Shown here: positions 1 through 25,022 of the stretch, in pieces
How the letters are laid out: each line of letters opens with the position of its first letter
Position numbering within the stretch: position 1 is the stretch's first letter
Virus record (IMG/VR): IMGVR_UViG_3300042914_000971
Span: 1-27,727 of that record
Direction: 5' to 3' (one strand)
Source: a virus
Length of the DNA stretch: 27,727 bases
Notes under the pieces: model-generated
The model's database searches: none
Seen by the model: the letters and a program-made list of their open reading frames with translations, nothing else
What the model was told of the DNA's origin: nothing
Translations under genes and position numbers: made by a program

Positions 1-200
1 TGCTCGTGCAGCAGGTGCTCGATGAATGGCTCATCGACGTGTTGCGTTTCCTCGGTACTTGCATCAAAGCACCTAGGTTCTGTCGCCGGCTGCGACACTT
101 CATACCACTCCTCATGCGGCTTGCCTGCCGCTTGGTTCTCACGGCGGATCTGCACAGCAGAACGCAGCAACTCGTTGGCGTCTTCAATCGTGGTCGTCAT
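1..200 (-). CDS. Partial hypothetical protein, running off the left edge
   Basis: An open frame starts with ATG at 200 on the minus strand and stays open to base 1, giving 66 residues and no stop inside the window. An AAGGGA ribosome binding site lies about 6 bases before the ATG. The start overlaps the end of the phosphoesterase gene by 17 bases, which fits the tight packing elsewhere. The visible part begins MTTTIEDANELLRSAVQIRR and is rich in Glu and His, with no motif I recognise. Function unknown; the start is fairly secure and the product is incomplete. Confidence 0.7.
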   Translation of the reverse strand, partial: MTTTIEDANELLRSAVQIRRENQAAGKPHEEWYEVSQPATEPRCFDASTEETQHVDEPFIEHLLHE

Positions 201-1089
201 TGTCGTCCCTTGGTGAATCGTGGAATGATGCCCGCAACTCCGTATGGTCTACATTCCACCGCAAGAGCATCCACCAACCGCCAAGCGGGCGCGAGCTCAT
301 GCCCTTCTCGACGGCCCAGCCATCGGTCAGGCTCTCCTGCTTGTAGGCCGCACTTCGCACGAGGTGGATAGGCCGCACCCGCACAAGCCCCGTAGGCGAG
401 AGCCGTTGCCGGCTGGCCTCAACCATGGTGCGTTGATGAACGTGCCCTGCGTGGATGCAGTCCGCATCAACGTCCACCAAGTACCGCGAGTAATCGATAA
501 TTCCGCGTGTTATAGGTCCCCCGCCACCATAACCGTGGTGATACCAAAGCCGGTACAGGGCCGTGCTCGTCTTTCCGGCCTTGGCCCGAAACATCACCCA
601 GCCCGAGTAGCCAGCGGCCCTGCACTTGCTACCACGCACCCGCAGTTGCTCGACGAGCCGCGTGGTCAAGCACGTCTCCATGCGTTTCCGCACAGCCGTC
701 TCGTGGTTGCCCGGCGTTATCAGCGCCATCTGCTCGCGGTACGGCTCTAGGTACTCGGCGCACTGGGTAACAATGTCGTCGTAGTAGTTGCCGCGTTGGA
801 ACTCTGGCCTTACGTCCCACTTGCCATTGGAGCGGGGATCGTACTTGCCGCCCATCGCATCGAAGTGGTCGCCAATGGAAAGCACTGCGGCGTTGAGCTC
901 ACGGGCTTTCGTGAGATCCGCCGTGAGCTTCTCGCGGTCGCACTTCACTGAGTCCCAGTGCCAGTCCGAAGAGAGCAGCACCCATAGGCGGGTGTTGAAA
1001 TCAATGCGCGTGACGCTGCCATCAAGGCTTGTGACGTTCCACGGGTCTGATGCGTTCTTCCTGCGGAATGTGCCAGCGCTACGGCCCAT
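184..1089 (-). CDS. Calcineurin-like metallophosphoesterase
   Basis: The 301-residue protein carries the ordered metal-binding motifs of calcineurin-like phosphoesterases: SDWHWDS (Asp42, His44), GDHFD (Asp74), GNHE (Asn128, His129), a His pair at 184-185 and HAGHVH (His213, His216, His218). Family members hydrolyse phosphomono- or diesters with two metal ions; phage members have been linked to nucleic-acid or nucleotide processing, but the substrate here is not known. An AGGTG ribosome binding site precedes the ATG. It overlaps the upstream peptidase gene by 11 bases, so the two are probably cotranslated. The last residues are Asp-rich. Family assignment is strong, role in the phage is not. 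Confidence 0.9.
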   Translation of the reverse strand: MGRSAGTFRRKNASDPWNVTSLDGSVTRIDFNTRLWVLLSSDWHWDSVKCDREKLTADLTKARELNAAVLSIGDHFDAMGGKYDPRSNGKWDVRPEFQRGNYYDDIVTQCAEYLEPYREQMALITPGNHETAVRKRMETCLTTRLVEQLRVRGSKCRAAGYSGWVMFRAKAGKTSTALYRLWYHHGYGGGGPITRGIIDYSRYLVDVDADCIHAGHVHQRTMVEASRQRLSPTGLVRVRPIHLVRSAAYKQESLTDGWAVEKGMSSRPLGGWWMLLRWNVDHTELRASFHDSPRDDNDDHD

Positions 1090-3212: not shown

Positions 3213-4091
3213 CTACTGCTGTGTGGGTGTTCCGAAATACTGCTGGAAGTTCACGGCCTTATGCACGCGGCGAACTAAGACCGTGGGGGCACCCGTGGAC
3301 AACGCGCCGGCTGACGTGAGCGGCTGCGGATTGCTTGCTGGCACTTGCTCAATGGGTTGACCGCTGCCTGGATCGTATGCCACCGTCACCCGTTTCTTGG
3401 TGCCGCCGTCCAGGTAGTTCCACCCGACGTTGGGCAGCTGGAGCGGCCACCCGTCAGGGCGATACTCCAGCGTGACCTCGACTTGCCAGTAGCGAATCTC
3501 CGATTCATTCACGACTTCGACGGCAGGCGTCGCAGCAATGCCGCTGCACTTCCATGTGTACTGGGCACCGCCAAGGTAGGCAGAAGAGTTGATTGCGTTG
3601 GTCACCGTCGTGGCCAGCCCGTAGTCGAACGTGGCACGGTTGCCGCTAATGGACGCCTGGAGCGTCGAAATATCTGTCTGCACGCCCTCAAAAAAGTCTT
3701 GGGCGGAGTTTTGCAGCGGCGTGAGAACGTCGCCACTCTCGTAGTAGTAGAGCGCCGGCACTTGCAGGCCCCCGGTGCTCCACTTCCAGATGTCTGCTCG
3801 AGCCAGCGGGTTGGGGTCTACGTTCTGCTGCTTCGGCAGTTCATAGTCCCACGTCACCTCGTAGTGCCAGCGTGAGCCGTTGTAGTTGGCTACGCTGACG
3901 TTCATAGCCTTGCAGTACGACGCCTCCGGGTGAGCCTGCAAGAACACCACGCCAGGGTAGTTGGCAATGTCGGTCTGCTTCGTCGTCGGGTCATCAACCT
4001 CAACAACGAACTTGCGCTGAAATACGGGCGGCTCGCCAAACTTCCGAGAAGCGGCAACGGTGGCAAGCTCGGTATAGGAAAGAATGGCCAT
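3213..4091 (-). CDS. Putative tail protein downstream of tape measure
   Basis: The 292-residue protein directly follows the tape measure gene, sharing one base (TGATG). In siphophages this place is usually held by the distal tail protein or another baseplate-hub protein, so a tail-tip role is likely from synteny alone. The sequence is aromatic-rich (Trp, Tyr) with beta-type alternation, for example YNGSRWHYEVTWDYEL and RYWQVEVTLEYRPDGW, and ends in a Pro/Gln/Thr-rich tail. I see no Dit-specific motif, so the exact identity is open. Confidence 0.65.
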   Translation of the reverse strand: MAILSYTELATVAASRKFGEPPVFQRKFVVEVDDPTTKQTDIANYPGVVFLQAHPEASYCKAMNVSVANYNGSRWHYEVTWDYELPKQQNVDPNPLARADIWKWSTGGLQVPALYYYESGDVLTPLQNSAQDFFEGVQTDISTLQASISGNRATFDYGLATTVTNAINSSAYLGGAQYTWKCSGIAATPAVEVVNESEIRYWQVEVTLEYRPDGWPLQLPNVGWNYLDGGTKKRVTVAYDPGSGQPIEQVPASNPQPLTSAGALSTGAPTVLVRRVHKAVNFQQYFGTPTQQ

Positions 4092-5971
4092 CAGGCTGCA
4101 GCCCCCAAGATGTCCACCTTTTCCTGCTGCAACGCTCGAAGCTCAGCACGGATTTCGTCCAGTTTCTGCGTCTGCTTGCGATACTCGGCAATGGCAGGAT
4201 CTTCTCGCCCCGACGCCAAGGCCAGGAACTGCGCCATGCCCTCGCTTGAGCGAACGTCTCCGGCCTTCAAGGCTTCGTTGGACTTGCCGCCGAGAGCGGA
4301 CTGACGTTCAGCAACTACCTTGTCGATGTCTTCCTGCTTGGCGGCCATCTTCTCGTCAACCTTGGCAGCGTCCTCGGCTCGCTTGCGGTCTGCTTCAATC
4401 AGTTTCTGCTCGTTCTCCCTTCGGGCGGCGAGCATATTCATTTCAAAGTCAAACTTTTCTTTTTCTTCTTTCCTTTGTGCGTCAGCAATTGCTTCTTCGT
4501 TGGCCCGCCGGGCTTCAAAGATTTGCTGCTCTTGATTCGCGCGTTCCTGGGAAGACTTTTTGTCTGCATCGGCAATCGCCTGCTCGTTTGCGAGCCTTGC
4601 CTGATAAATCTGTAGATCTAGATCAAGGGTGTCTTTTGCTTCAGTTGGCCCTTGAGCCGCTGCCGCGTCTGCCGCAGCGCCGGCGGCAGGATTCTGGCCG
4701 CTTGCAAATGCCCGGCCAATGATTGGCACCTTCGACATAAAGGTGTAGAAATCCTTGATCTTCTGGCTGGCCCAATCAATCTGCTCGCCTATGTAGCCAA
4801 AGGCAGCATTCATGCCGCTGCGGATGGCTTCTACGACGTTCGTGAGCCCGACGATAAACGGAGAGAGGAAGGTTTGGACAACAGCCCCAGCGACTTTGAG
4901 CACAATGCCAAGGGTTTCGCCAAGCACGCCAACAAGCTTCAACACGCCTTCCACGACCGTCCCAAGCAGCGTGGCCACTGGTGCAAATGCTTGAGCGATT
5001 GGCGACACAATCGACGTGACGCCTTCAACTACGCCGCTGATGCCGTCCGTAAAGCCAGCAAGTCCAGACTGAACGGCCGCAAAGGCTCCAATGAACGGCG
5101 TCACGAACACGTCGGCCAGCCCAGCAAATGCACTCTCGGAACGCTCGCCGGCAGCAGTCGCCTCTTCCATGGCAAAAGCTAGGTTGTCCACCTGCTGGGC
5201 CTGCACCTGGCCAAGCTCAGCGTTTAGCGATTCCAGCGCGACGGTTCCGGCAGTGATTCCGGCTGCCATCTCAAAGGCTCGGTCCTTTGCGTTCAGAAAC
5301 GCCTTGCCGAGATTGATCGCCAGCAAGGCACCGCCGATGAGCGGATTGCTCAGCCCCAGCACTGCAGCTGCCGTAGTTCCGGCGGCACCGCCACTGATGG
5401 CCAGGCCGATGCCAAGAGCCTTGGCGGCCAGAATCATCGTGCGGGCAGCCATGGCCCCCTTAAGAGCACCAACGGCAAAGTCCTTCAGCCCTGCTGGGTT
5501 GCGAATGGCGCTAAAGAGTTTCCACTGCAAGTACGTGTAGGCAATGTCTTTGCCAAATGCGATGACGCTAATGCCAGCATCGGCCACGCTCTTGGTGGCA
5601 TCGCCAATCCCGCCGATCGCGCCGCTGAGCCCGTTCACGATCCGCTCAGTGACGCTGGCGGCTCTCGCCATATCGTCCACACTCGAGGTGGCCGCCTTCA
5701 GTTCTGCGTCGGCCTTGGCAACGGCCCTGCCGTAGACTTCTTGCGACAGAATGCCCTTCTGCATCATCGCGTCGAGCTTGCCGATAGTGTCGGCGTACTT
5801 CTCAGTCGGCGTCCGCAGTTCCGCCGTAATCTTTGCCGCCTGGCGAAACTCAGCAGCCGTGGCCTTTGCGCTGGCTCCAACCTTGGACAACTCGCGGTCT
5901 GCCTGCGCAACGCCAGCTGCTACGCCATCGGCGTTCGCGCTCAGCTGAAAGGCTAGGTCAAGTTTGGCCAT
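4091..5971 (-). CDS. Tail tape measure protein
   Basis: At 626 residues this is the longest gene in the window and it sits straight after the frameshifted chaperone pair, the usual place of the tape measure gene. The N-terminal half is Ala-rich and helical, with long hydrophobic Gly/Ala stretches around residues 115-225 that suit membrane insertion during DNA ejection. The C-terminal part is a highly charged coiled coil with three 29-residue repeats (residues 454-540). With about 1.5 angstrom of tail per residue, a tail of roughly 90-100 nm is expected. The ATG overlaps the chaperone extension by 14 bases and no good ribosome binding site is seen, suggesting translational coupling. Confidence 0.9.
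   Translation of the reverse strand: MAKLDLAFQLSANADGVAAGVAQADRELSKVGASAKATAAEFRQAAKITAELRTPTEKYADTIGKLDAMMQKGILSQEVYGRAVAKADAELKAATSSVDDMARAASVTERIVNGLSGAIGGIGDATKSVADAGISVIAFGKDIAYTYLQWKLFSAIRNPAGLKDFAVGALKGAMAARTMILAAKALGIGLAISGGAAGTTAAAVLGLSNPLIGGALLAINLGKAFLNAKDRAFEMAAGITAGTVALESLNAELGQVQAQQVDNLAFAMEEATAAGERSESAFAGLADVFVTPFIGAFAAVQSGLAGFTDGISGVVEGVTSIVSPIAQAFAPVATLLGTVVEGVLKLVGVLGETLGIVLKVAGAVVQTFLSPFIVGLTNVVEAIRSGMNAAFGYIGEQIDWASQKIKDFYTFMSKVPIIGRAFASGQNPAAGAAADAAAAQGPTEAKDTLDLDLQIYQARLANEQAIADADKKSSQERANQEQQIFEARRANEEAIADAQRKEEKEKFDFEMNMLAARRENEQKLIEADRKRAEDAAKVDEKMAAKQEDIDKVVAERQSALGGKSNEALKAGDVRSSEGMAQFLALASGREDPAIAEYRKQTQKLDEIRAELRALQQEKVDILGAAA
4352..4612 (-). repeat. Three tandem 29-residue coiled-coil repeats in the tape measure gene
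   Basis: Translated on the minus strand, three consecutive 29-residue units align. They begin QIYQARLANEQAIADADKK, QIFEARRANEEAIADAQRK and NMLAARRENEQKLIEADRK. They cover residues 454-540 of the tape measure protein. Internal duplication of helical units is a known way for tape measure length to change. The units are diverged at DNA level, so the duplication is not recent. Confidence 0.8.
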
Positions 5972-6610
5972 GGGTGGGCGGTTTCAGTTTTGAAAGTTCT
6001 GCGGCTATCTCTTCACCAGACATCGGCGGCCGACGTATCGGCATGAAGTCTTCGGGCTTTGGCGTCCTGCCTTTGACGTGCGGGGCTATCGTGAGCGCCG
6101 CAAGCGTTCCGATCTGCTGCCACTCCCTGCCAAACGGCTCCACGTACCTATCAAACGCCATCCACTCTCTCAGCAACGTCACCGGCATTGCGTTGACGTA
6201 TTCCCAACTCCAGCCAGTCGCTAACGCCAAACGAAACAAGAAGGCCCGGTCTGGCCGGGCTCTCAGTTTTTTGCCAGTTCCTCAATCGACTCATCCGAAA
6301 GGTTGTTGTGTTCCATAGCGGCCTGCCAAACACGGTTAACAACCTTGGCAGACTTTGCCGCCAGCTTTGCAACGTCGCCGTTGTCAAAGAGCCGGTTGCC
6401 CTTCTCGTCCACAAGGCACCGCACCAGAAACTTGGAGCGGAAATCGTCAACGCCTGTGTCTTTCTTTCGCATCCACTCGTTTTCGTAGGCGTCACGCTCT
6501 CCCACGCTCATCACTCGCACATAAACATCACCGCCCCACTCTGGCACGGTGAGCTTGAGCATTCCGAGATCGTCTGCGGCAAGAATCTGATCTTTGGTAA
6601 GGGCCGGCAT
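5958..6610 (-). CDS. Tail assembly chaperone long form (gpGT-like), made by -1 frameshift
   Basis: If ribosomes slip back one base on the AAAAAAC heptamer at 6272-6266, the 115-residue short chaperone continues for 102 more residues to the stop at 5958, giving a 217-residue fusion like lambda gpG-T. The extension begins LRARPDRAFLFRLALATGWSWEYVNAMP and ends in a Pro/Gln-rich tail. The extension has no convincing start of its own: only a TTG at 6239 without a ribosome binding site. In lambda the long form brings the tape measure and tail tube protein together and is absent from the virion. Gene order (tube, chaperone, tape measure) agrees fully. Confidence 0.88.
6244..6272 (-). promoter_or_regulatory. 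Programmed -1 ribosomal frameshift signal (slippery AAAAAAC plus hairpin)
   Basis: In the chaperone reading frame the codons GCA AAA AAC TGA place a perfect X_XXY_YYZ heptamer (A AAA AAC) at 6272-6266, directly before the zero-frame stop. Five bases later a hairpin GCCCGG-CCAGA-CCGGGC spans 6260-6244. Heptamer, spacing and hairpin are all as expected for -1 frameshifting in long-tailed phages. Confidence 0.9.
6263..6610 (-). CDS. Tail assembly chaperone short form (gpG-like)
   Basis: A 115-residue acidic protein (MPALTKDQILAADDLGMLKL at the start, EELAKN at the end) whose stop lies right after the slippery heptamer. The start shares one base with the stop of the tail-tube-like gene before it (TAATG). 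Proteins of this place and size bind the tape measure during tail assembly. The N-terminal pattern, an ILAADD segment followed by an EWGG-type loop and a VGERDAYE helix, is typical of small phage chaperones of the gp13/gpG class. The function rests on synteny plus the frameshift signal. Confidence 0.85.
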   Translation of the reverse strand: MPALTKDQILAADDLGMLKLTVPEWGGDVYVRVMSVGERDAYENEWMRKKDTGVDDFRSKFLVRCLVDEKGNRLFDNGDVAKLAAKSAKVVNRVWQAAMEHNNLSDESIEELAKN

Positions 6611-6990
6611 TACGTTGTCGCTCCTAGTTTGAATGCCACAGAGTATTCCTGTAGCTCTCCTACACTAGCCCGCCATGCAAGCGATTGGATAATTGCAACG
6701 CCGTTCCAGTACTGCTCCCCGCCTAACCCAAACTTGTACACAATAAGGTCACAAGTCTGCCCGACTAGGGAATCAGTAATCTGACTGCGTGAGCGCATGA
6801 CGAAAGACGCGGTGCCGTCGTCCGTGTCTGCTGGCCGAAACTTCTTCTTGCGGACAGTAGACGTGCGAGGAGTGACCTCAACGGTGTCAGCTTGCACGCC
6901 GTCAATAGACGCACTTGTGACTTCCTCGAAGTCAATGTCTCCGAAGTCGCCACTGATAGTGACGCCGATGCCCTGCGAACTAGTTGCCAC
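6610..6990 (-). CDS. Tail tube-like protein 2
   Basis: A 126-residue protein starting with GTG at 6990 behind a GGGAGG ribosome binding site. It is related to the gene just upstream: both open MAT.SQG...T.SG and both end with SVGEL followed by an alternating S.(S/A)FK segment. This tail-tube fold is common in small siphophage tube proteins. The gene directly precedes the chaperones, the usual place of the major tail protein. Either this one or its neighbour is the main tube subunit; the other may be a tube variant, terminator or decoration. Confidence 0.7.
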   Translation of the reverse strand: MATSSQGIGVTISGDFGDIDFEEVTSASIDGVQADTVEVTPRTSTVRKKKFRPADTDDGTASFVMRSRSQITDSLVGQTCDLIVYKFGLGGEQYWNGVAIIQSLAWRASVGELQEYSVAFKLGATT

Positions 6991-7005: not shown

Positions 7006-7329
7006 TTACGCGACCTTGAACGAGAGCGACTGCTTGACGAGTTCGCCCACGCTGTAGGCCACGCTGGAGCTCGAAACGGTTGCCGTGTACGTCACCGAAG
7101 CAAACGTGAGTGCGCCGGCTGTCCCAATTTGAACAATGGCCGTCCCGAAAGCCTCAACAGAGATTTCATTGTCCTTAAGCGCGGGTGCCTGAAAGAGCCG
7201 ATTGGCACCGCTGGTCTGCCCTAGATGCGACTGATCAAGCAAATCGCCGCCAGGCGTGACAGTGACGCTAGTGACGGTGTACGTGCTGCCGCTGAAGGTG
7301 AACGTATTGCCCTGCGAATCAGTCGCCAT
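7006..7329 (-). CDS. Tail tube-like protein 1
   Basis: A 107-residue beta-rich protein (MATDSQGNTFTFSGSTYTVT at the N-terminus) with an ATG start behind AGGAG. The C-terminal YSVGELVKQSLSFKVA matches the end of the following gene, so the two look like an old tandem duplication. The N-terminal half describes strand-turn-strand elements as in tail tube proteins. It is shorter than most major tail proteins. Which of the two copies forms the tube cannot be told from sequence alone. Confidence 0.7.
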   Translation of the reverse strand: MATDSQGNTFTFSGSTYTVTSVTVTPGGDLLDQSHLGQTSGANRLFQAPALKDNEISVEAFGTAIVQIGTAGALTFASVTYTATVSSSSVAYSVGELVKQSLSFKVA

Positions 7330-22343: not shown

Positions 22344-23205
22344 TGGCAGTCTCCATCCAACTCATGATCATTCGCTGCGACGGGTTCAGGTAAAGGTGCT
22401 GGCCCGTGGCTCTCGCAATGCTCTGATGAAACGGAACGTGCTCGCAGTCTCTCACGCCGTCATACGTTCCCTTCAGATAGGCATCGGTGCGGTAAATGCA
22501 CATGCCCCCAAACGCAGACGAGACGAGCACGGGCGGCGAGCCAACCGGTGGAAGCCATGTGTAACCAAACCCGCCGTACCCATTTTGGTACGTGTCGAAA
22601 TAGCACTCGGTTTGCCCAACGCCGCGCAAGGCCCACAAGTCATAGTGGTGCCACGACGGCCCGTGGCCGAAGTCGTACTGAAAGAGCGACGTGCTGGCCA
22701 TGCCGTACGCACCTGGCAACTCAACGAGCCATCCAAAGCCATTCAGCACGCCTTGGTGGTTCCACCCGCCCCACGCATCCCAGTCAATCACGCACACGTA
22801 GTCGGCGTCAGGCGAGCACGCACGCACCCACCGCTGGCATGAGTCGCGGTATTCCGCCAAGGCGATCGTGCGGCGGCCGGCAAACTCTGAACTATGCTGC
22901 TCGCGCCCAAGAATCTGGTAGTGAAAAGTCGCCTGCGGCTTCTCGCGGCAGTAGTCGTGCAGCACTTCTAGCGTGGCATCCTCGCAGTCGTTGCTCTCAA
23001 TGTGCAGCGACCACGAGCCGCACAGATCCTGCAGCTGCTCGAGCAGGCCAAGGTTTTGGGCGAGTCGCACGGCGCAGTTTCGGGCAAGCCCAACGAAAGC
23101 CACCTTTGAGTTTCGCAGCCGGGCCGCGCCATCTTCGGCACGCTGGGCGTAGTCCTGCGTGAAGGGCTTGTGCGGCTGCCACAGATTAGATGGCATCTCA
23201 GGCAT
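22315..23205 (-). CDS. Glycosyltransferase-like protein (GT-A, DxD)
   Basis: The 296-residue form from ATG 23205 (8-base overlap with the previous gene) fits best; a Met three codons later is possible. It opens with KVAFVGLARNCAVRLAQNLG, has SWSLHIESNDCEDATLEVL (acidic donor-binding region) and a metal site DWDAW (residues 141-145) after YVCVI, then FGGMCIYRTDAYL and DCEHVPFHQ. The order is like GT-A enzymes of the GT69/mannosyltransferase type. Donor and acceptor unknown. Clustered with another glycosyltransferase and a methyltransferase, it may decorate DNA, virion proteins or host polysaccharide. Confidence 0.7.
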   Translation of the reverse strand: MPEMPSNLWQPHKPFTQDYAQRAEDGAARLRNSKVAFVGLARNCAVRLAQNLGLLEQLQDLCGSWSLHIESNDCEDATLEVLHDYCREKPQATFHYQILGREQHSSEFAGRRTIALAEYRDSCQRWVRACSPDADYVCVIDWDAWGGWNHQGVLNGFGWLVELPGAYGMASTSLFQYDFGHGPSWHHYDLWALRGVGQTECYFDTYQNGYGGFGYTWLPPVGSPPVLVSSAFGGMCIYRTDAYLKGTYDGVRDCEHVPFHQSIARATGQHLYLNPSQRMIMSWMETANAANSLNGV

Positions 23206-23962
23206 GGACGCCTCGCTTTCTGCACAGGGCTGCCGCTGCGTCACCTGGGACGCCAGACGATGCCAGAAAAGAAACGCACTCAGCCATGTAGCGAATCGAA
23301 TCTGCGCTGTTTCGGTTCGTGGCACCGTAACCGTGATCGTCCTGCGTGAACGTCGCGCCGGCACCGGGCACAAACACGCAGCCCCACAACGCGGCTACTG
23401 CGGCAAACCCGATGGCGTCAGACCACGGGCCCATGCGCCAGAACTGCTTGGCCTCTAGCCATCGCAGGCAATCAAGACGCATGCCACTGCCAATGCCGGT
23501 TTCTGTTGGGTACGGGTATTTCACCAGCCTGCTGCAAACCTGCGCCGAGCTCATGTGAGTCACCGACTCAAAGCCGTTCGAGACGGCACCGATTTGCGTG
23601 CCATCAGTGTTGGCAACCCAGTAGTCGTGGAACACTACAGCGGCATTGGGGTGACGGTTGACGCTATCCACAACGCCATTGGCCAGCCAATCGTCCGCGC
23701 CCATTTGGATGACGTGCGAGCCCTGGAGCGTGCGATAGAAACCAGCCATGGCCTCCTGCCAATCGGCGGCCTTGGACCCATAACGCTCGTACCTAATGCA
23801 CGGGTACACGCCAAGCAGCTGCTCAACGATGCCGGGCGTGTCATCAGTGCTGGCGTCATCCACGACGAGCACCTCGAACGGGTTCTGCGAAGCAGCCGAG
23901 ACAATGGCACGGCTGAGCGTTGCCGCCCTGTTGCGGGTGGGAATGACAACGGACACGCTCAT
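23198..23962 (-). CDS. Family 2 glycosyltransferase
   Basis: A 254-residue GT2 enzyme: MSVSVVIPTRNRAATLSRAI at the start, the nucleotide-sugar Asp motif VLVVDDASTDDT (residues 31-42), the DxD-like site GADDW (88-92), and the acceptor-side motif near FTQDDHGY. I chose ATG 23962, which overlaps the methyltransferase stop (ATGA), over an upstream start. No membrane helix is seen, so it works in the cytosol. Overlaps on both sides indicate coordinated synthesis with the methyltransferase and the second glycosyltransferase. Confidence 0.88.
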   Translation of the reverse strand: MSVSVVIPTRNRAATLSRAIVSAASQNPFEVLVVDDASTDDTPGIVEQLLGVYPCIRYERYGSKAADWQEAMAGFYRTLQGSHVIQMGADDWLANGVVDSVNRHPNAAVVFHDYWVANTDGTQIGAVSNGFESVTHMSSAQVCSRLVKYPYPTETGIGSGMRLDCLRWLEAKQFWRMGPWSDAIGFAAVAALWGCVFVPGAGATFTQDDHGYGATNRNSADSIRYMAECVSFLASSGVPGDAAAALCRKRGVHA

Positions 23963-24627
23963 AGTTTGGCCCCAGTGCAGATGGCTAGCCGGTAGTGACA
24001 CATCGGGCCAAAGCCGGTGTGCAACGTCTCGTCGTTCATCCCGAACACAAACACGTTTCGCCAGTAGCGTTTTAGCGTGGCCCTAAACTCGCCTTCGGTC
24101 TTGCAGTTCACATGCCCAGCCTTGCTGAGATCTGACGCATGCGGCTGAGACTCAAGCGACGGCATGCCGCAGATAAACGTGCCGTGTTGCCCGATGCTCA
24201 GGGCCACGTTGCCGAGAAATGAGCCCTCGTGCTCCTGGCGTATGTGCTCAAGCACGTCGAGAGCGTAGGCGGCATCAAACACGACTGGCAGGCGATCAGG
24301 CACGTAGCGTGGTGCAGCTACCATGTCGTGCTGCATTAGCATCACGTTGTCGGGCTGCTGCCGGGATCGGGCCTCTTCAATGAACGCGGCATCGAAGTCC
24401 GTTGCGATTACGCGGCCAACGGACTGAGCCACGATCCGTGTGGCAAACGCATCGCCGCAGCCCGCCTCAAGCACCCAATCGCAGCCAGCGAGAACACGGG
24501 CAACAAACTTGTACCGGGCAAGCGTGAACCCCAGCCGCTTCGAGTCCACCTCGTAGGTGTGCGAACTCATCAGCCCAAGCGAATGCCTCTGGTATTCAGC
24601 AAGAACGTCGTATTGCTGTTCGTTCAC
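23959..24627 (-). CDS. Class I SAM-dependent methyltransferase
   Basis: The 222-residue protein has the Rossmann-type motifs: VLEAGCGDAFATRIVA (motif I, residues 52-67), an acidic residue at the end of strand 2 (VIATDFDA), then LMQHDMVAA and AYALDVLEHI (motif IV-like, with the EHI seen in small-molecule or sugar methyltransferases). The lack of a DNA-methyltransferase DPPY motif argues against base methylation. With glycosyltransferases on its 3-prime side it more likely acts on a sugar or glycan. ATG at 24627 overlaps the RusA stop by four bases. Confidence 0.88.
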   Translation of the reverse strand: MNEQQYDVLAEYQRHSLGLMSSHTYEVDSKRLGFTLARYKFVARVLAGCDWVLEAGCGDAFATRIVAQSVGRVIATDFDAAFIEEARSRQQPDNVMLMQHDMVAAPRYVPDRLPVVFDAAYALDVLEHIRQEHEGSFLGNVALSIGQHGTFICGMPSLESQPHASDLSKAGHVNCKTEGEFRATLKRYWRNVFVFGMNDETLHTGFGPMCHYRLAICTGAKL

Positions 24628-25022
24628 GACACACGCACGGTAGTCCGTGCCTCCTGGCCGTATGACTTTTCCACCACCAATCGCCCCACCAGCGAGTCAT
24701 CGCCCATCACGTCCTGCAGTGCGTCAAGCACCGCCTTGGCGATGTTGTCCACGTCGGGCCTGGGCAGCTTCGGTGCATCGGGTTTCACGCCGGCCTTTCG
24801 TAGGTGGGACTTGGGACGCTCAAACACTGCATCAATCACCACGTTGAGCGGCTCGCCGGTTGTCGTAAGCCCGGCACCTCGAGCAGCTGCTGCGATGGCC
24901 GAGCGGTACGCATGCACTGGGTGCTTCCCTGGCACGTACGCACGGGCGAACCCGCCCGCAGTCGAGACTCGCGGCCTCGGCTGTGGGACGGGCTGCCCTG
25001 CGACTGAGAACGTGACGGCCAA
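24624..25022 (-). CDS. rusA: Holliday junction resolvase RusA
   Basis: The 132-residue protein has the RusA signatures: GQPVPQPRPRV near the start, ERPKSH in the middle, and PRPDVDNIAKAVLDALQDVMGDD with Asp90, Asp92, Lys96 and Asp108/109 standing for the known catalytic Asp70, Asp72, Lys76 and Asp91 of the E. coli enzyme. RusA cuts four-way DNA junctions formed in recombination or replication. The start is TTG at 25022, four bases after the stop of the preceding gene. A phage needs it to resolve branched DNA before packaging. Confidence 0.92.
   Translation of the reverse strand: MAVTFSVAGQPVPQPRPRVSTAGGFARAYVPGKHPVHAYRSAIAAAARGAGLTTTGEPLNVVIDAVFERPKSHLRKAGVKPDAPKLPRPDVDNIAKAVLDALQDVMGDDSLVGRLVVEKSYGQEARTTVRVS

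What the first reader, a model, noticed from the sequence alone, without database searches (positions are those of the whole stretch)
6244..6610. Textbook -1 frameshift site joins the two tail chaperone frames
Codons GCA AAA AAC TGA give an in-frame A_AAA_AAC heptamer right at the stop, with a 6-bp GC hairpin five bases on. The -1 frame runs 102 codons to 5958 and has no believable start of its own. Predicted products are 115 and 217 residues. An automatic annotation would list two genes and miss the fusion.
Basis: partly seen in the sequence, partly recalled or inferred. Interest (0 to 1): 0.6.

Follow-up and report, generated by a model that had tools for sequence, protein, structure and literature searches.

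The report
Frameshift joining two phage tail chaperones
A bacterial virus carries the well-known slip signal that makes some ribosomes change reading frame to fuse two tail-assembly chaperone parts; relatives keep the slip site and usually an RNA stem after it, so this is a new member of a known kind with a few unreported twists.

Summary
On the minus strand a 115-residue tail chaperone gene (G) ends GCA AAA AAC TGA. The heptamer A_AAA_AAC is followed after five bases by a 6-bp GC hairpin, and the -1 frame (T) continues for 102 codons, giving a 217-residue G-T fusion. G matches PHROG 344 and the HK97 chaperone fold. T matches Pfam PF06223, the phage lambda T domain.

The -1 frameshift is strongly supported. 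A canonical in-phase heptamer occurs in 103 of 109 unique relatives and in 144 of 145 fresh ones, although all three stop codons follow it.

Three refinements. (1) The 6-bp hairpin belongs to this lineage and some neighbours. Most relatives instead carry a longer stem (median 11 bp, spacer 6 nt, loop 15 nt) with strong covariation (arm-swap z -7.3; -6.6 on fresh sequences). That is a putative slip motif reported from many actinophage chaperone genes, and the long stem is kept, so it looks like a swap, not a loss. (3) An AUGA overlap there leaves re-initiation open for that lineage.

No frameshifting was measured. New member of a known kind.

The parts
6263..6610 (-). gene G: tail assembly chaperone, 115 aa, ATG to TGA
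   Evidence: translation; PHROG 344 tail assembly chaperone E 1.1e-27; Foldseek best PDB hit 2OB9, HK97 tail assembly chaperone, E 2.3e-3
6266..6272 (-). slippery heptamer A_AAA_AAC, in phase, directly before the stop
   Evidence: conservation
6263..6265 (-). zero-frame stop TGA (TAA or TAG in many relatives)
6244..6260 (-). hairpin S1: GCCCGG / loop CCAGA / CCGGGC, 5-nt spacer; likely stimulator in this lineage
   Evidence: -12.1 kcal/mol; synonymous null p 0.048; five third positions invariant in 12 unique sequences
6226..6255 (-). remnant or alternative longer stem S2: GCCAGAC (6255-6249) with GTTTGGC (6232-6226), 7 bp, spacer 10 nt; it overlaps S1
   Evidence: -8.6 kcal/mol; p 0.405 against synonymous recoding in the window itself; family-wide S2
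5958..6266 (-). -1 frame (T domain): CTG AGA GCC ... to stop, 102 sense codons; the fusion with G is 217 aa
   Evidence: PF06223 Phage_tail_T 34.4 bits, cut-off 25.9; 29 of 29 aligned members match
4091..5971 (-). tape measure protein, 626 aa, its ATG overlapping the end of T
   Evidence: weak PHROG 3336 tape-measure match E 0.0012; position directly after the chaperones

Best explanation
The site is a -1 programmed ribosomal frameshift of the lambda G/GT type. Most ribosomes stop at TGA and release the 115-aa chaperone G. A minority slip back one base while AAA and AAC are being decoded on A_AAA_AAC (both tRNAs re-pair in the -1 frame), helped by the RNA structure just downstream, and make the 217-aa G-T fusion. 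As in lambda, the G part would coat the tape measure protein and the T part would recruit the major tail protein; the slip rate sets the G to G-T ratio. Shown here: the reading frames, heptamer, homologies, conservation, and covariation of the downstream stem in relatives. Inferred: that slipping happens, its rate, that the 6-bp hairpin is the stimulator in this lineage, and the roles of G and G-T in this phage.
For: Observation exact. G is a tail assembly chaperone with HK97 chaperone (2OB9) as best PDB fold hit. T is a PF06223 domain. Of 109 unique G genes (window included) 100 carry a canonical heptamer in the last 60 nt, three more further up the frame overlap, five GGGGGAA and one none. 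Of 145 fresh unique G genes, 144 carry a canonical heptamer. Stops after the abutting heptamer vary freely: 34 TGA, 24 TAA, 13 TAG of 71; 48, 39, 33 of 120 fresh. T-frame differences beyond codon 15 fall mostly at third positions: 257 of 403. Downstream stem covariation: 22 reps under 80% identity, native -17.7 against -13.0 kcal/mol with swapped arms, z -7.3, 0 of 5000; z -7.5 at this offset against mean -0.1, sd 1.0, minimum -3.3 at 64 other positions; fresh set n 19, z -6.55, 0 of 3000. Named phages Dubu, Jflix2 and phiSASD1 with homologous G have a two-piece joined CDS, with GGGAAAC before TGA in Dubu and phiSASD1. Two genes of an HK97-like chaperone cluster gave 6% and 7% frameshifting in a published test (PMC3711429, passage).
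Against: No measurement in this phage or host. In the window itself overall folding is no better than synonymous recoding (MFE p 0.605), and the family-wide stem is weak (p 0.405). Six close relatives lack this heptamer, one fresh relative has GCAAAAATC (L468), and L138 has none found. Pfam TAC matches to G are below their gathering scores in the window's protein. A_AAA_AAC is less slippery than A_AAA_AAG in E. coli (PMC5009743, passage); the host is unknown.
Confidence: 0.95

Rival explanations
1. T is made as a separate protein by re-initiation or internal initiation after G's stop, without a fusion.
For: In the GGGGGAA lineage the T frame begins with ATG overlapping the stop (GAATGA) in all five unique sequences.
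Against: In the window the first start codons of T lie behind the conserved RPDRAF stretch and lack a Shine-Dalgarno. T residues close to the slip point are among the invariant or nearly invariant ones (L1, R4, P5, F9, L13, A14). Stops TAA/TAG make the codon at the junction CTA (37 of 71 and 72 of 120). Only 11 of 71 abutting-heptamer genes have any ATG/GTG/TTG in the first nine T codons.
Confidence: 0.03
2. The two frames are one gene split by a sequencing or assembly indel, or a decayed gene.
For: Split genes in metagenome contigs can be errors (general knowledge).
Against: The same break at the same heptamer recurs in hundreds of contigs and in isolate or MAG genomes, and a homologous break in finished phage genomes. 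Both frames show third-position-biased change.
Confidence: 0.01
3. The 6-bp hairpin is not a frameshift stimulator; it is a by-product of the codons for RARPDRA or a weak transcription terminator, and slipping relies on the heptamer alone.
For: Modest shuffle score (15 of 200). The terminator scan finds it but expects 1.3 such sites by chance (two found). S1 shows no covariation in fresh relatives (z about 0). L133 and L198 have neither a strong S1 nor a strong S2.
Against: Five T third positions in S1 are invariant in 12 unique sequences while 62 of 97 vary overall (p 0.005). S1 beats synonymous recoding in L001, L124, L119 and L114 (p 0.005 to 0.048). A family-wide structure in the same place covaries strongly.
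Confidence: 0.3

Closest known systems
Phage lambda gpG / gpGT (-1 frameshift, PF06223 T domain)
   Same: Gene order G, -1 frame T, tape measure; T-domain family (PF06223, above cut-off); slip close before the stop of G
   Different: Slip site here is A_AAA_AAC (lambda's is recalled as G_GGA_AAG); G has no Pfam match above cut-off; no measured ratio
HK97 tail assembly chaperone (PDB 2OB9) and its frameshifted cluster tested in PMC3711429
   Same: Best fold match of the G model; a fusion type measured at 6-7% in that cluster
   Different: 17-20% sequence identity on a moderate model (pLDDT 69); the stem structure here was not compared with HK97's
Streptomyces phages Dubu and phiSASD1, Rhodococcus phage Jflix2 chaperones
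   Same: Homologous G (38-41% identity), joined two-piece CDS annotated; T of Dubu and phiSASD1 with RPERxFYFRLA
   Different: Heptamers GGGAAAC (Dubu, phiSASD1) and, in Jflix2, GGGTTTC 40 nt before the stop; actinobacterial hosts
PRFect 'fivetwo' motif GGGGGAA in SEA-PHAGES chaperone genes (PMC10885494)
   Same: Identical heptamer in the sister lineage (L028, L031-L033, L044, L045), at the same position
   Different: Not the window's own heptamer; in those relatives it coincides with an AUGA overlap

Membership tests
lambda G/GT-type tail assembly chaperone pair | G-like chaperone upstream of the tape measure protein | tested here: met
   PHROG 344 E 1.1e-27 and tape-measure match E 0.0012; best PDB fold hit HK97 chaperone E 2.3e-3, TM 0.52-0.55; Pfam TAC models below gathering score for the window's G
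lambda G/GT-type tail assembly chaperone pair | T domain in another frame | tested here: met
   PF06223 34.4 bits against cut-off 25.9; 29 of 29 members of A5; BFVD fold search of T weak, best E 0.27, one hit named minor tail T
lambda G/GT-type tail assembly chaperone pair | Fusion and short form both made, in a fixed ratio, and needed for tail assembly | not testable with these tools
   Needs protein or reporter data
-1 programmed ribosomal frameshift (XXXYYYZ) | Heptamer in phase within the overlap of both frames | tested here: met
-1 programmed ribosomal frameshift (XXXYYYZ) | Heptamer conserved in relatives beyond protein need | tested here: met
   exceptions GGGGGAA lineage, L468, L138
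-1 programmed ribosomal frameshift (XXXYYYZ) | Downstream structure 5-9 nt away (spacing recalled), supported by covariation | tested here: inconclusive
   Met for the family (long stem); for the window's own 6-bp hairpin only conservation and p 0.048
-1 programmed ribosomal frameshift (XXXYYYZ) | Measured frameshift product | not testable with these tools
   none available

The most novel reading that the evidence does not exclude
In this phage group the recoding signal turns over while frameshifting is kept: an ancestral 11-bp covarying stem behind A_AAA_AAC gave way to a compact 6-bp hairpin in the window's lineage, while a sister lineage replaced the heptamer by G_GGG_GAA (creating an AUGA overlap) but kept the long stem. 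That would be natural evidence that GGGGGAA works as a -1 slip site outside actinophages, or that frameshift and re-initiation can replace one another.
Probability: 0.55. Interest if true: 0.45.

Novelty: new member of a known kind. Interest (0 to 1): 0.27.

Why it matters
Tail-chaperone frameshifting is textbook, so the site itself adds one uncultivated lineage. The comparative set is more useful: a covarying stem across a large phage group, and near relatives that differ mainly at the slip cassette, give ready-made natural variants for asking which heptamers and stems set the G to G-T ratio, and whether GGGGGAA really slips. It also shows that conservation of one hairpin seen in one genome should not be assumed for its relatives.

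Tried and rejected
RNAalifold on 28 ungapped representatives gave no consensus; the stem's register differs by about one base between lineages by hand count, so I used an arm-swap test instead. A pseudoknot in the window (loop CCAGA with downstream TTTGG) was considered and not adopted: within the window's lineage S1 is invariant, while the S2 pairing falls to -9 and -7 kcal/mol in L098 and L092 (row names). An upstream Shine-Dalgarno-like GAGG as a second stimulator was considered: 58 of 71 A_AAA_AAC genes have such a run within 20 nt, but so do 5 of 5 GGGGGAA genes, so it does not discriminate, and its spacing (5-6 nt) is short of dnaX's (recalled); left open. More GGGGGAA relatives were sought by DNA pattern: of 7 matches 6 were the known contigs and L253 was unrelated. 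Nucleotide search in phages: no match. Solved-structure sequence search with G: none. BFVD fold search with T: uninformative. Wheelbite and Madraxi junctions were not clearly comparable (Madraxi has no heptamer in the overlap; its record lists two separate chaperone genes). The duplex energies treat the two arms as free strands and so overstate hairpin stability; they are used only for comparison. The search for related loci returns only the best 80 per scan, so the counts describe those loci, not the whole collection; many loci are repeats of one contig and were collapsed by sequence.

Full report
WHAT IS THERE. The window is a 27,727-base virus record with a siphovirus-like head and tail module on the minus strand: terminase small and large subunits, portal, protease, major head protein, adaptor, head closure, tail terminator, neck protein, then G, T and a 626-aa tape measure protein. 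G runs from 6610 to 6263 and ends GCA AAA AAC TGA. The in-phase heptamer A_AAA_AAC occupies 6272-6266. A hairpin GCCCGG-CCAGA-CCGGGC lies at 6260-6244, five bases after the heptamer. The -1 frame continues for 102 codons to the stop at 5960-5958, giving a 217-aa fusion. Every number in the finding checks out.

WHAT THE TWO HALVES ARE. G matches PHROG 344 (tail assembly chaperone, E 1.1e-27). Its predicted fold (29 sequences, pLDDT 69) has the HK97 tail assembly chaperone 2OB9 as first PDB hit, E 2.3e-3, TM 0.52-0.55. Pfam chaperone models hit the window's G below their curated cut-off. T matches PF06223 'Minor tail protein T' above the cut-off (34.4 bits against 25.9), and all 29 aligned T frames match that family. 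This is the lambda G/T arrangement. According to passages of a review (PMC5009743), lambda makes G and GT at about 30:1, G and the G part of GT bind the tape measure, and T binds the tail tube protein.

IS THE SLIP SITE CONSERVED. Scans of viral and genome contigs gave 246 loci including the window's own, 243 with G, and 109 unique G genes with enough downstream sequence. Of these 109, 100 have a canonical in-phase heptamer in the last 60 nt (84 A_AAA_AAC). Of the other nine, five have GGGGGAA, three have a canonical heptamer further up the overlap and one (L138) none. Three further scans gave 238 loci and 145 unique G genes not in the first set: 120 A_AAA_AAC directly at the stop, 23 G_GGA_AAA, one A_AAA_AAC 37 nt up, one without (L468, GCAAAAATC) (2 cut loci were skipped there). 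All three stop codons follow the abutting A_AAA_AAC (34 TGA, 24 TAA, 13 TAG of 71; 48, 39, 33 of 120), so the conserved thing is the heptamer and not a start codon at the junction. The codons GCA and AAA are the less used ones elsewhere in these genes (16% of Ala, 24% of Lys).

In most relatives the codons for R-P-x and for F-R-L-A pair with one another into a long stem. In 44 representatives under 85% identity the best duplex between the two arms has a median 11 bp, starts a median 6 nt after the heptamer and encloses about 15 nt; 38 of 44 have at least 10 bp. Arm-swap test (native partner against partners from other sequences): 22 representatives under 80% identity, native -17.7, swapped -13.0 kcal/mol, z -7.3, 0 of 5000 permutations. 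The same test slid along 200 nt upstream and 250 nt downstream gave z -0.1 +/- 1.0 (minimum -3.3) at 64 other positions and -7.5 here. On fresh sequences only: 19 representatives, z -6.55, 0 of 3000; restricted to those under 80% identity to the first set, n 11, z -4.05, 0 of 3000. Against synonymous recoding the long stem is better at p 0.05 or less in 18 of 28 representatives, the short hairpin in 6 of 28. Results against: L133, L198, L237 and L136 show little of either by that test (p 0.055 to 0.46 for the long stem), and phiSASD1 has a weak stem.

THE WINDOW'S OWN LINEAGE. Here the long stem is reduced to 7 bp (GCCAGAC/GTTTGGC) with a 10-nt spacer, -8.6 kcal/mol, against -12.1 for the 6-bp hairpin; they overlap and exclude each other as simple stems. 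Five third codon positions of T in the short hairpin are unchanged in 12 unique near relatives (p 0.005), whereas the long-stem pairing erodes to -9 and -7 kcal/mol in L098 and L092. I therefore take the 6-bp hairpin as the likely stimulator in this lineage, with moderate confidence. L124, L119, L170, L114 and L134 can form both.

A LINEAGE WITH ANOTHER HEPTAMER. Six contigs 87-93% identical in G (L028, L031, L032, L033, L044, L045; five unique) read GCG GGG GAA TGA. On the G tree they need a single change (support 79/87) inside the A_AAA_AAC group. Nucleotide identity to the window falls to about 33-61% around the junction while mostly about 65-90% on both near sides, so the cassette was exchanged or changed fast. 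Their long stem is strong (L087 p 0.015, L147 p 0.003; whole-fold z -3.3 and -4.2). A paper on predicting frameshifts (PMC10885494, passages read) reports GGGGGAA as the only form of its 'fivetwo' motif, about a thousand sites in SEA-PHAGES data, and argues that G:U pairing lets the second tRNA re-pair; this is annotation-based, not a test. It is met to the letter, but the replacement is another putative slip site with its stem in place. The change also creates ATG overlapping the stop (GAATGA), so re-initiation cannot be excluded for that lineage; no relative seen separates the two.

KNOWN OR NEW. Named phages with homologous G carry a two-piece joined CDS (Dubu, Jflix2, phiSASD1), and 6% and 7% frameshifting was measured for two genes of an HK97-like chaperone cluster (PMC3711429, passage). 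The site is a new member of a known kind. I found no description of the covarying stem for this phage group in the listings of six answered literature searches, of which I opened passages of three papers; subscription papers, including the 2004 survey by Xu and colleagues (seen only in the reference list, not read), are mostly outside that library.

WHAT IS SHOWN AND WHAT IS INFERRED. Shown: sequence features, homology, conservation, covariation. Inferred: that ribosomes slip here, how often, which structure matters in this lineage, and the roles of the products in this phage.

Noticed in passing
L034-L038, L046-L049, L496 junctions: A_AAA_AAC kept but the zero-frame stop lies ten codons further on, so both frames are coding over the hairpin.
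   Followed up: partly
window 6283-6278 and relatives: The Glu-Glu pair before the slip is written GAG GAA in 56 of 64 cases, giving a GAGGA Shine-Dalgarno-like run 5-6 nt before the heptamer; other Glu-Glu pairs in these genes rarely use it.
   Followed up: partly
L468 junction: A lone relative reads GCAAAAATC TAG: the heptamer is altered while the T frame stays open; sequencing error or real loss unknown.
   Followed up: no
L138: G homologue with no canonical or GGGGGAA heptamer found in the frame overlap.
   Followed up: no
window 23198-24001, 23959-24627, 24624-25022, 184-1089 (minus strand): Weak GtrB-like match, weak methyltransferase match, RusA-like resolvase, and a DNA repair exonuclease match.
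   Followed up: no
window 6610-6990 and 7006-7329 (minus strand): Two small proteins where a major tail protein is expected, with no PHROG match at E 0.1.
   Followed up: no
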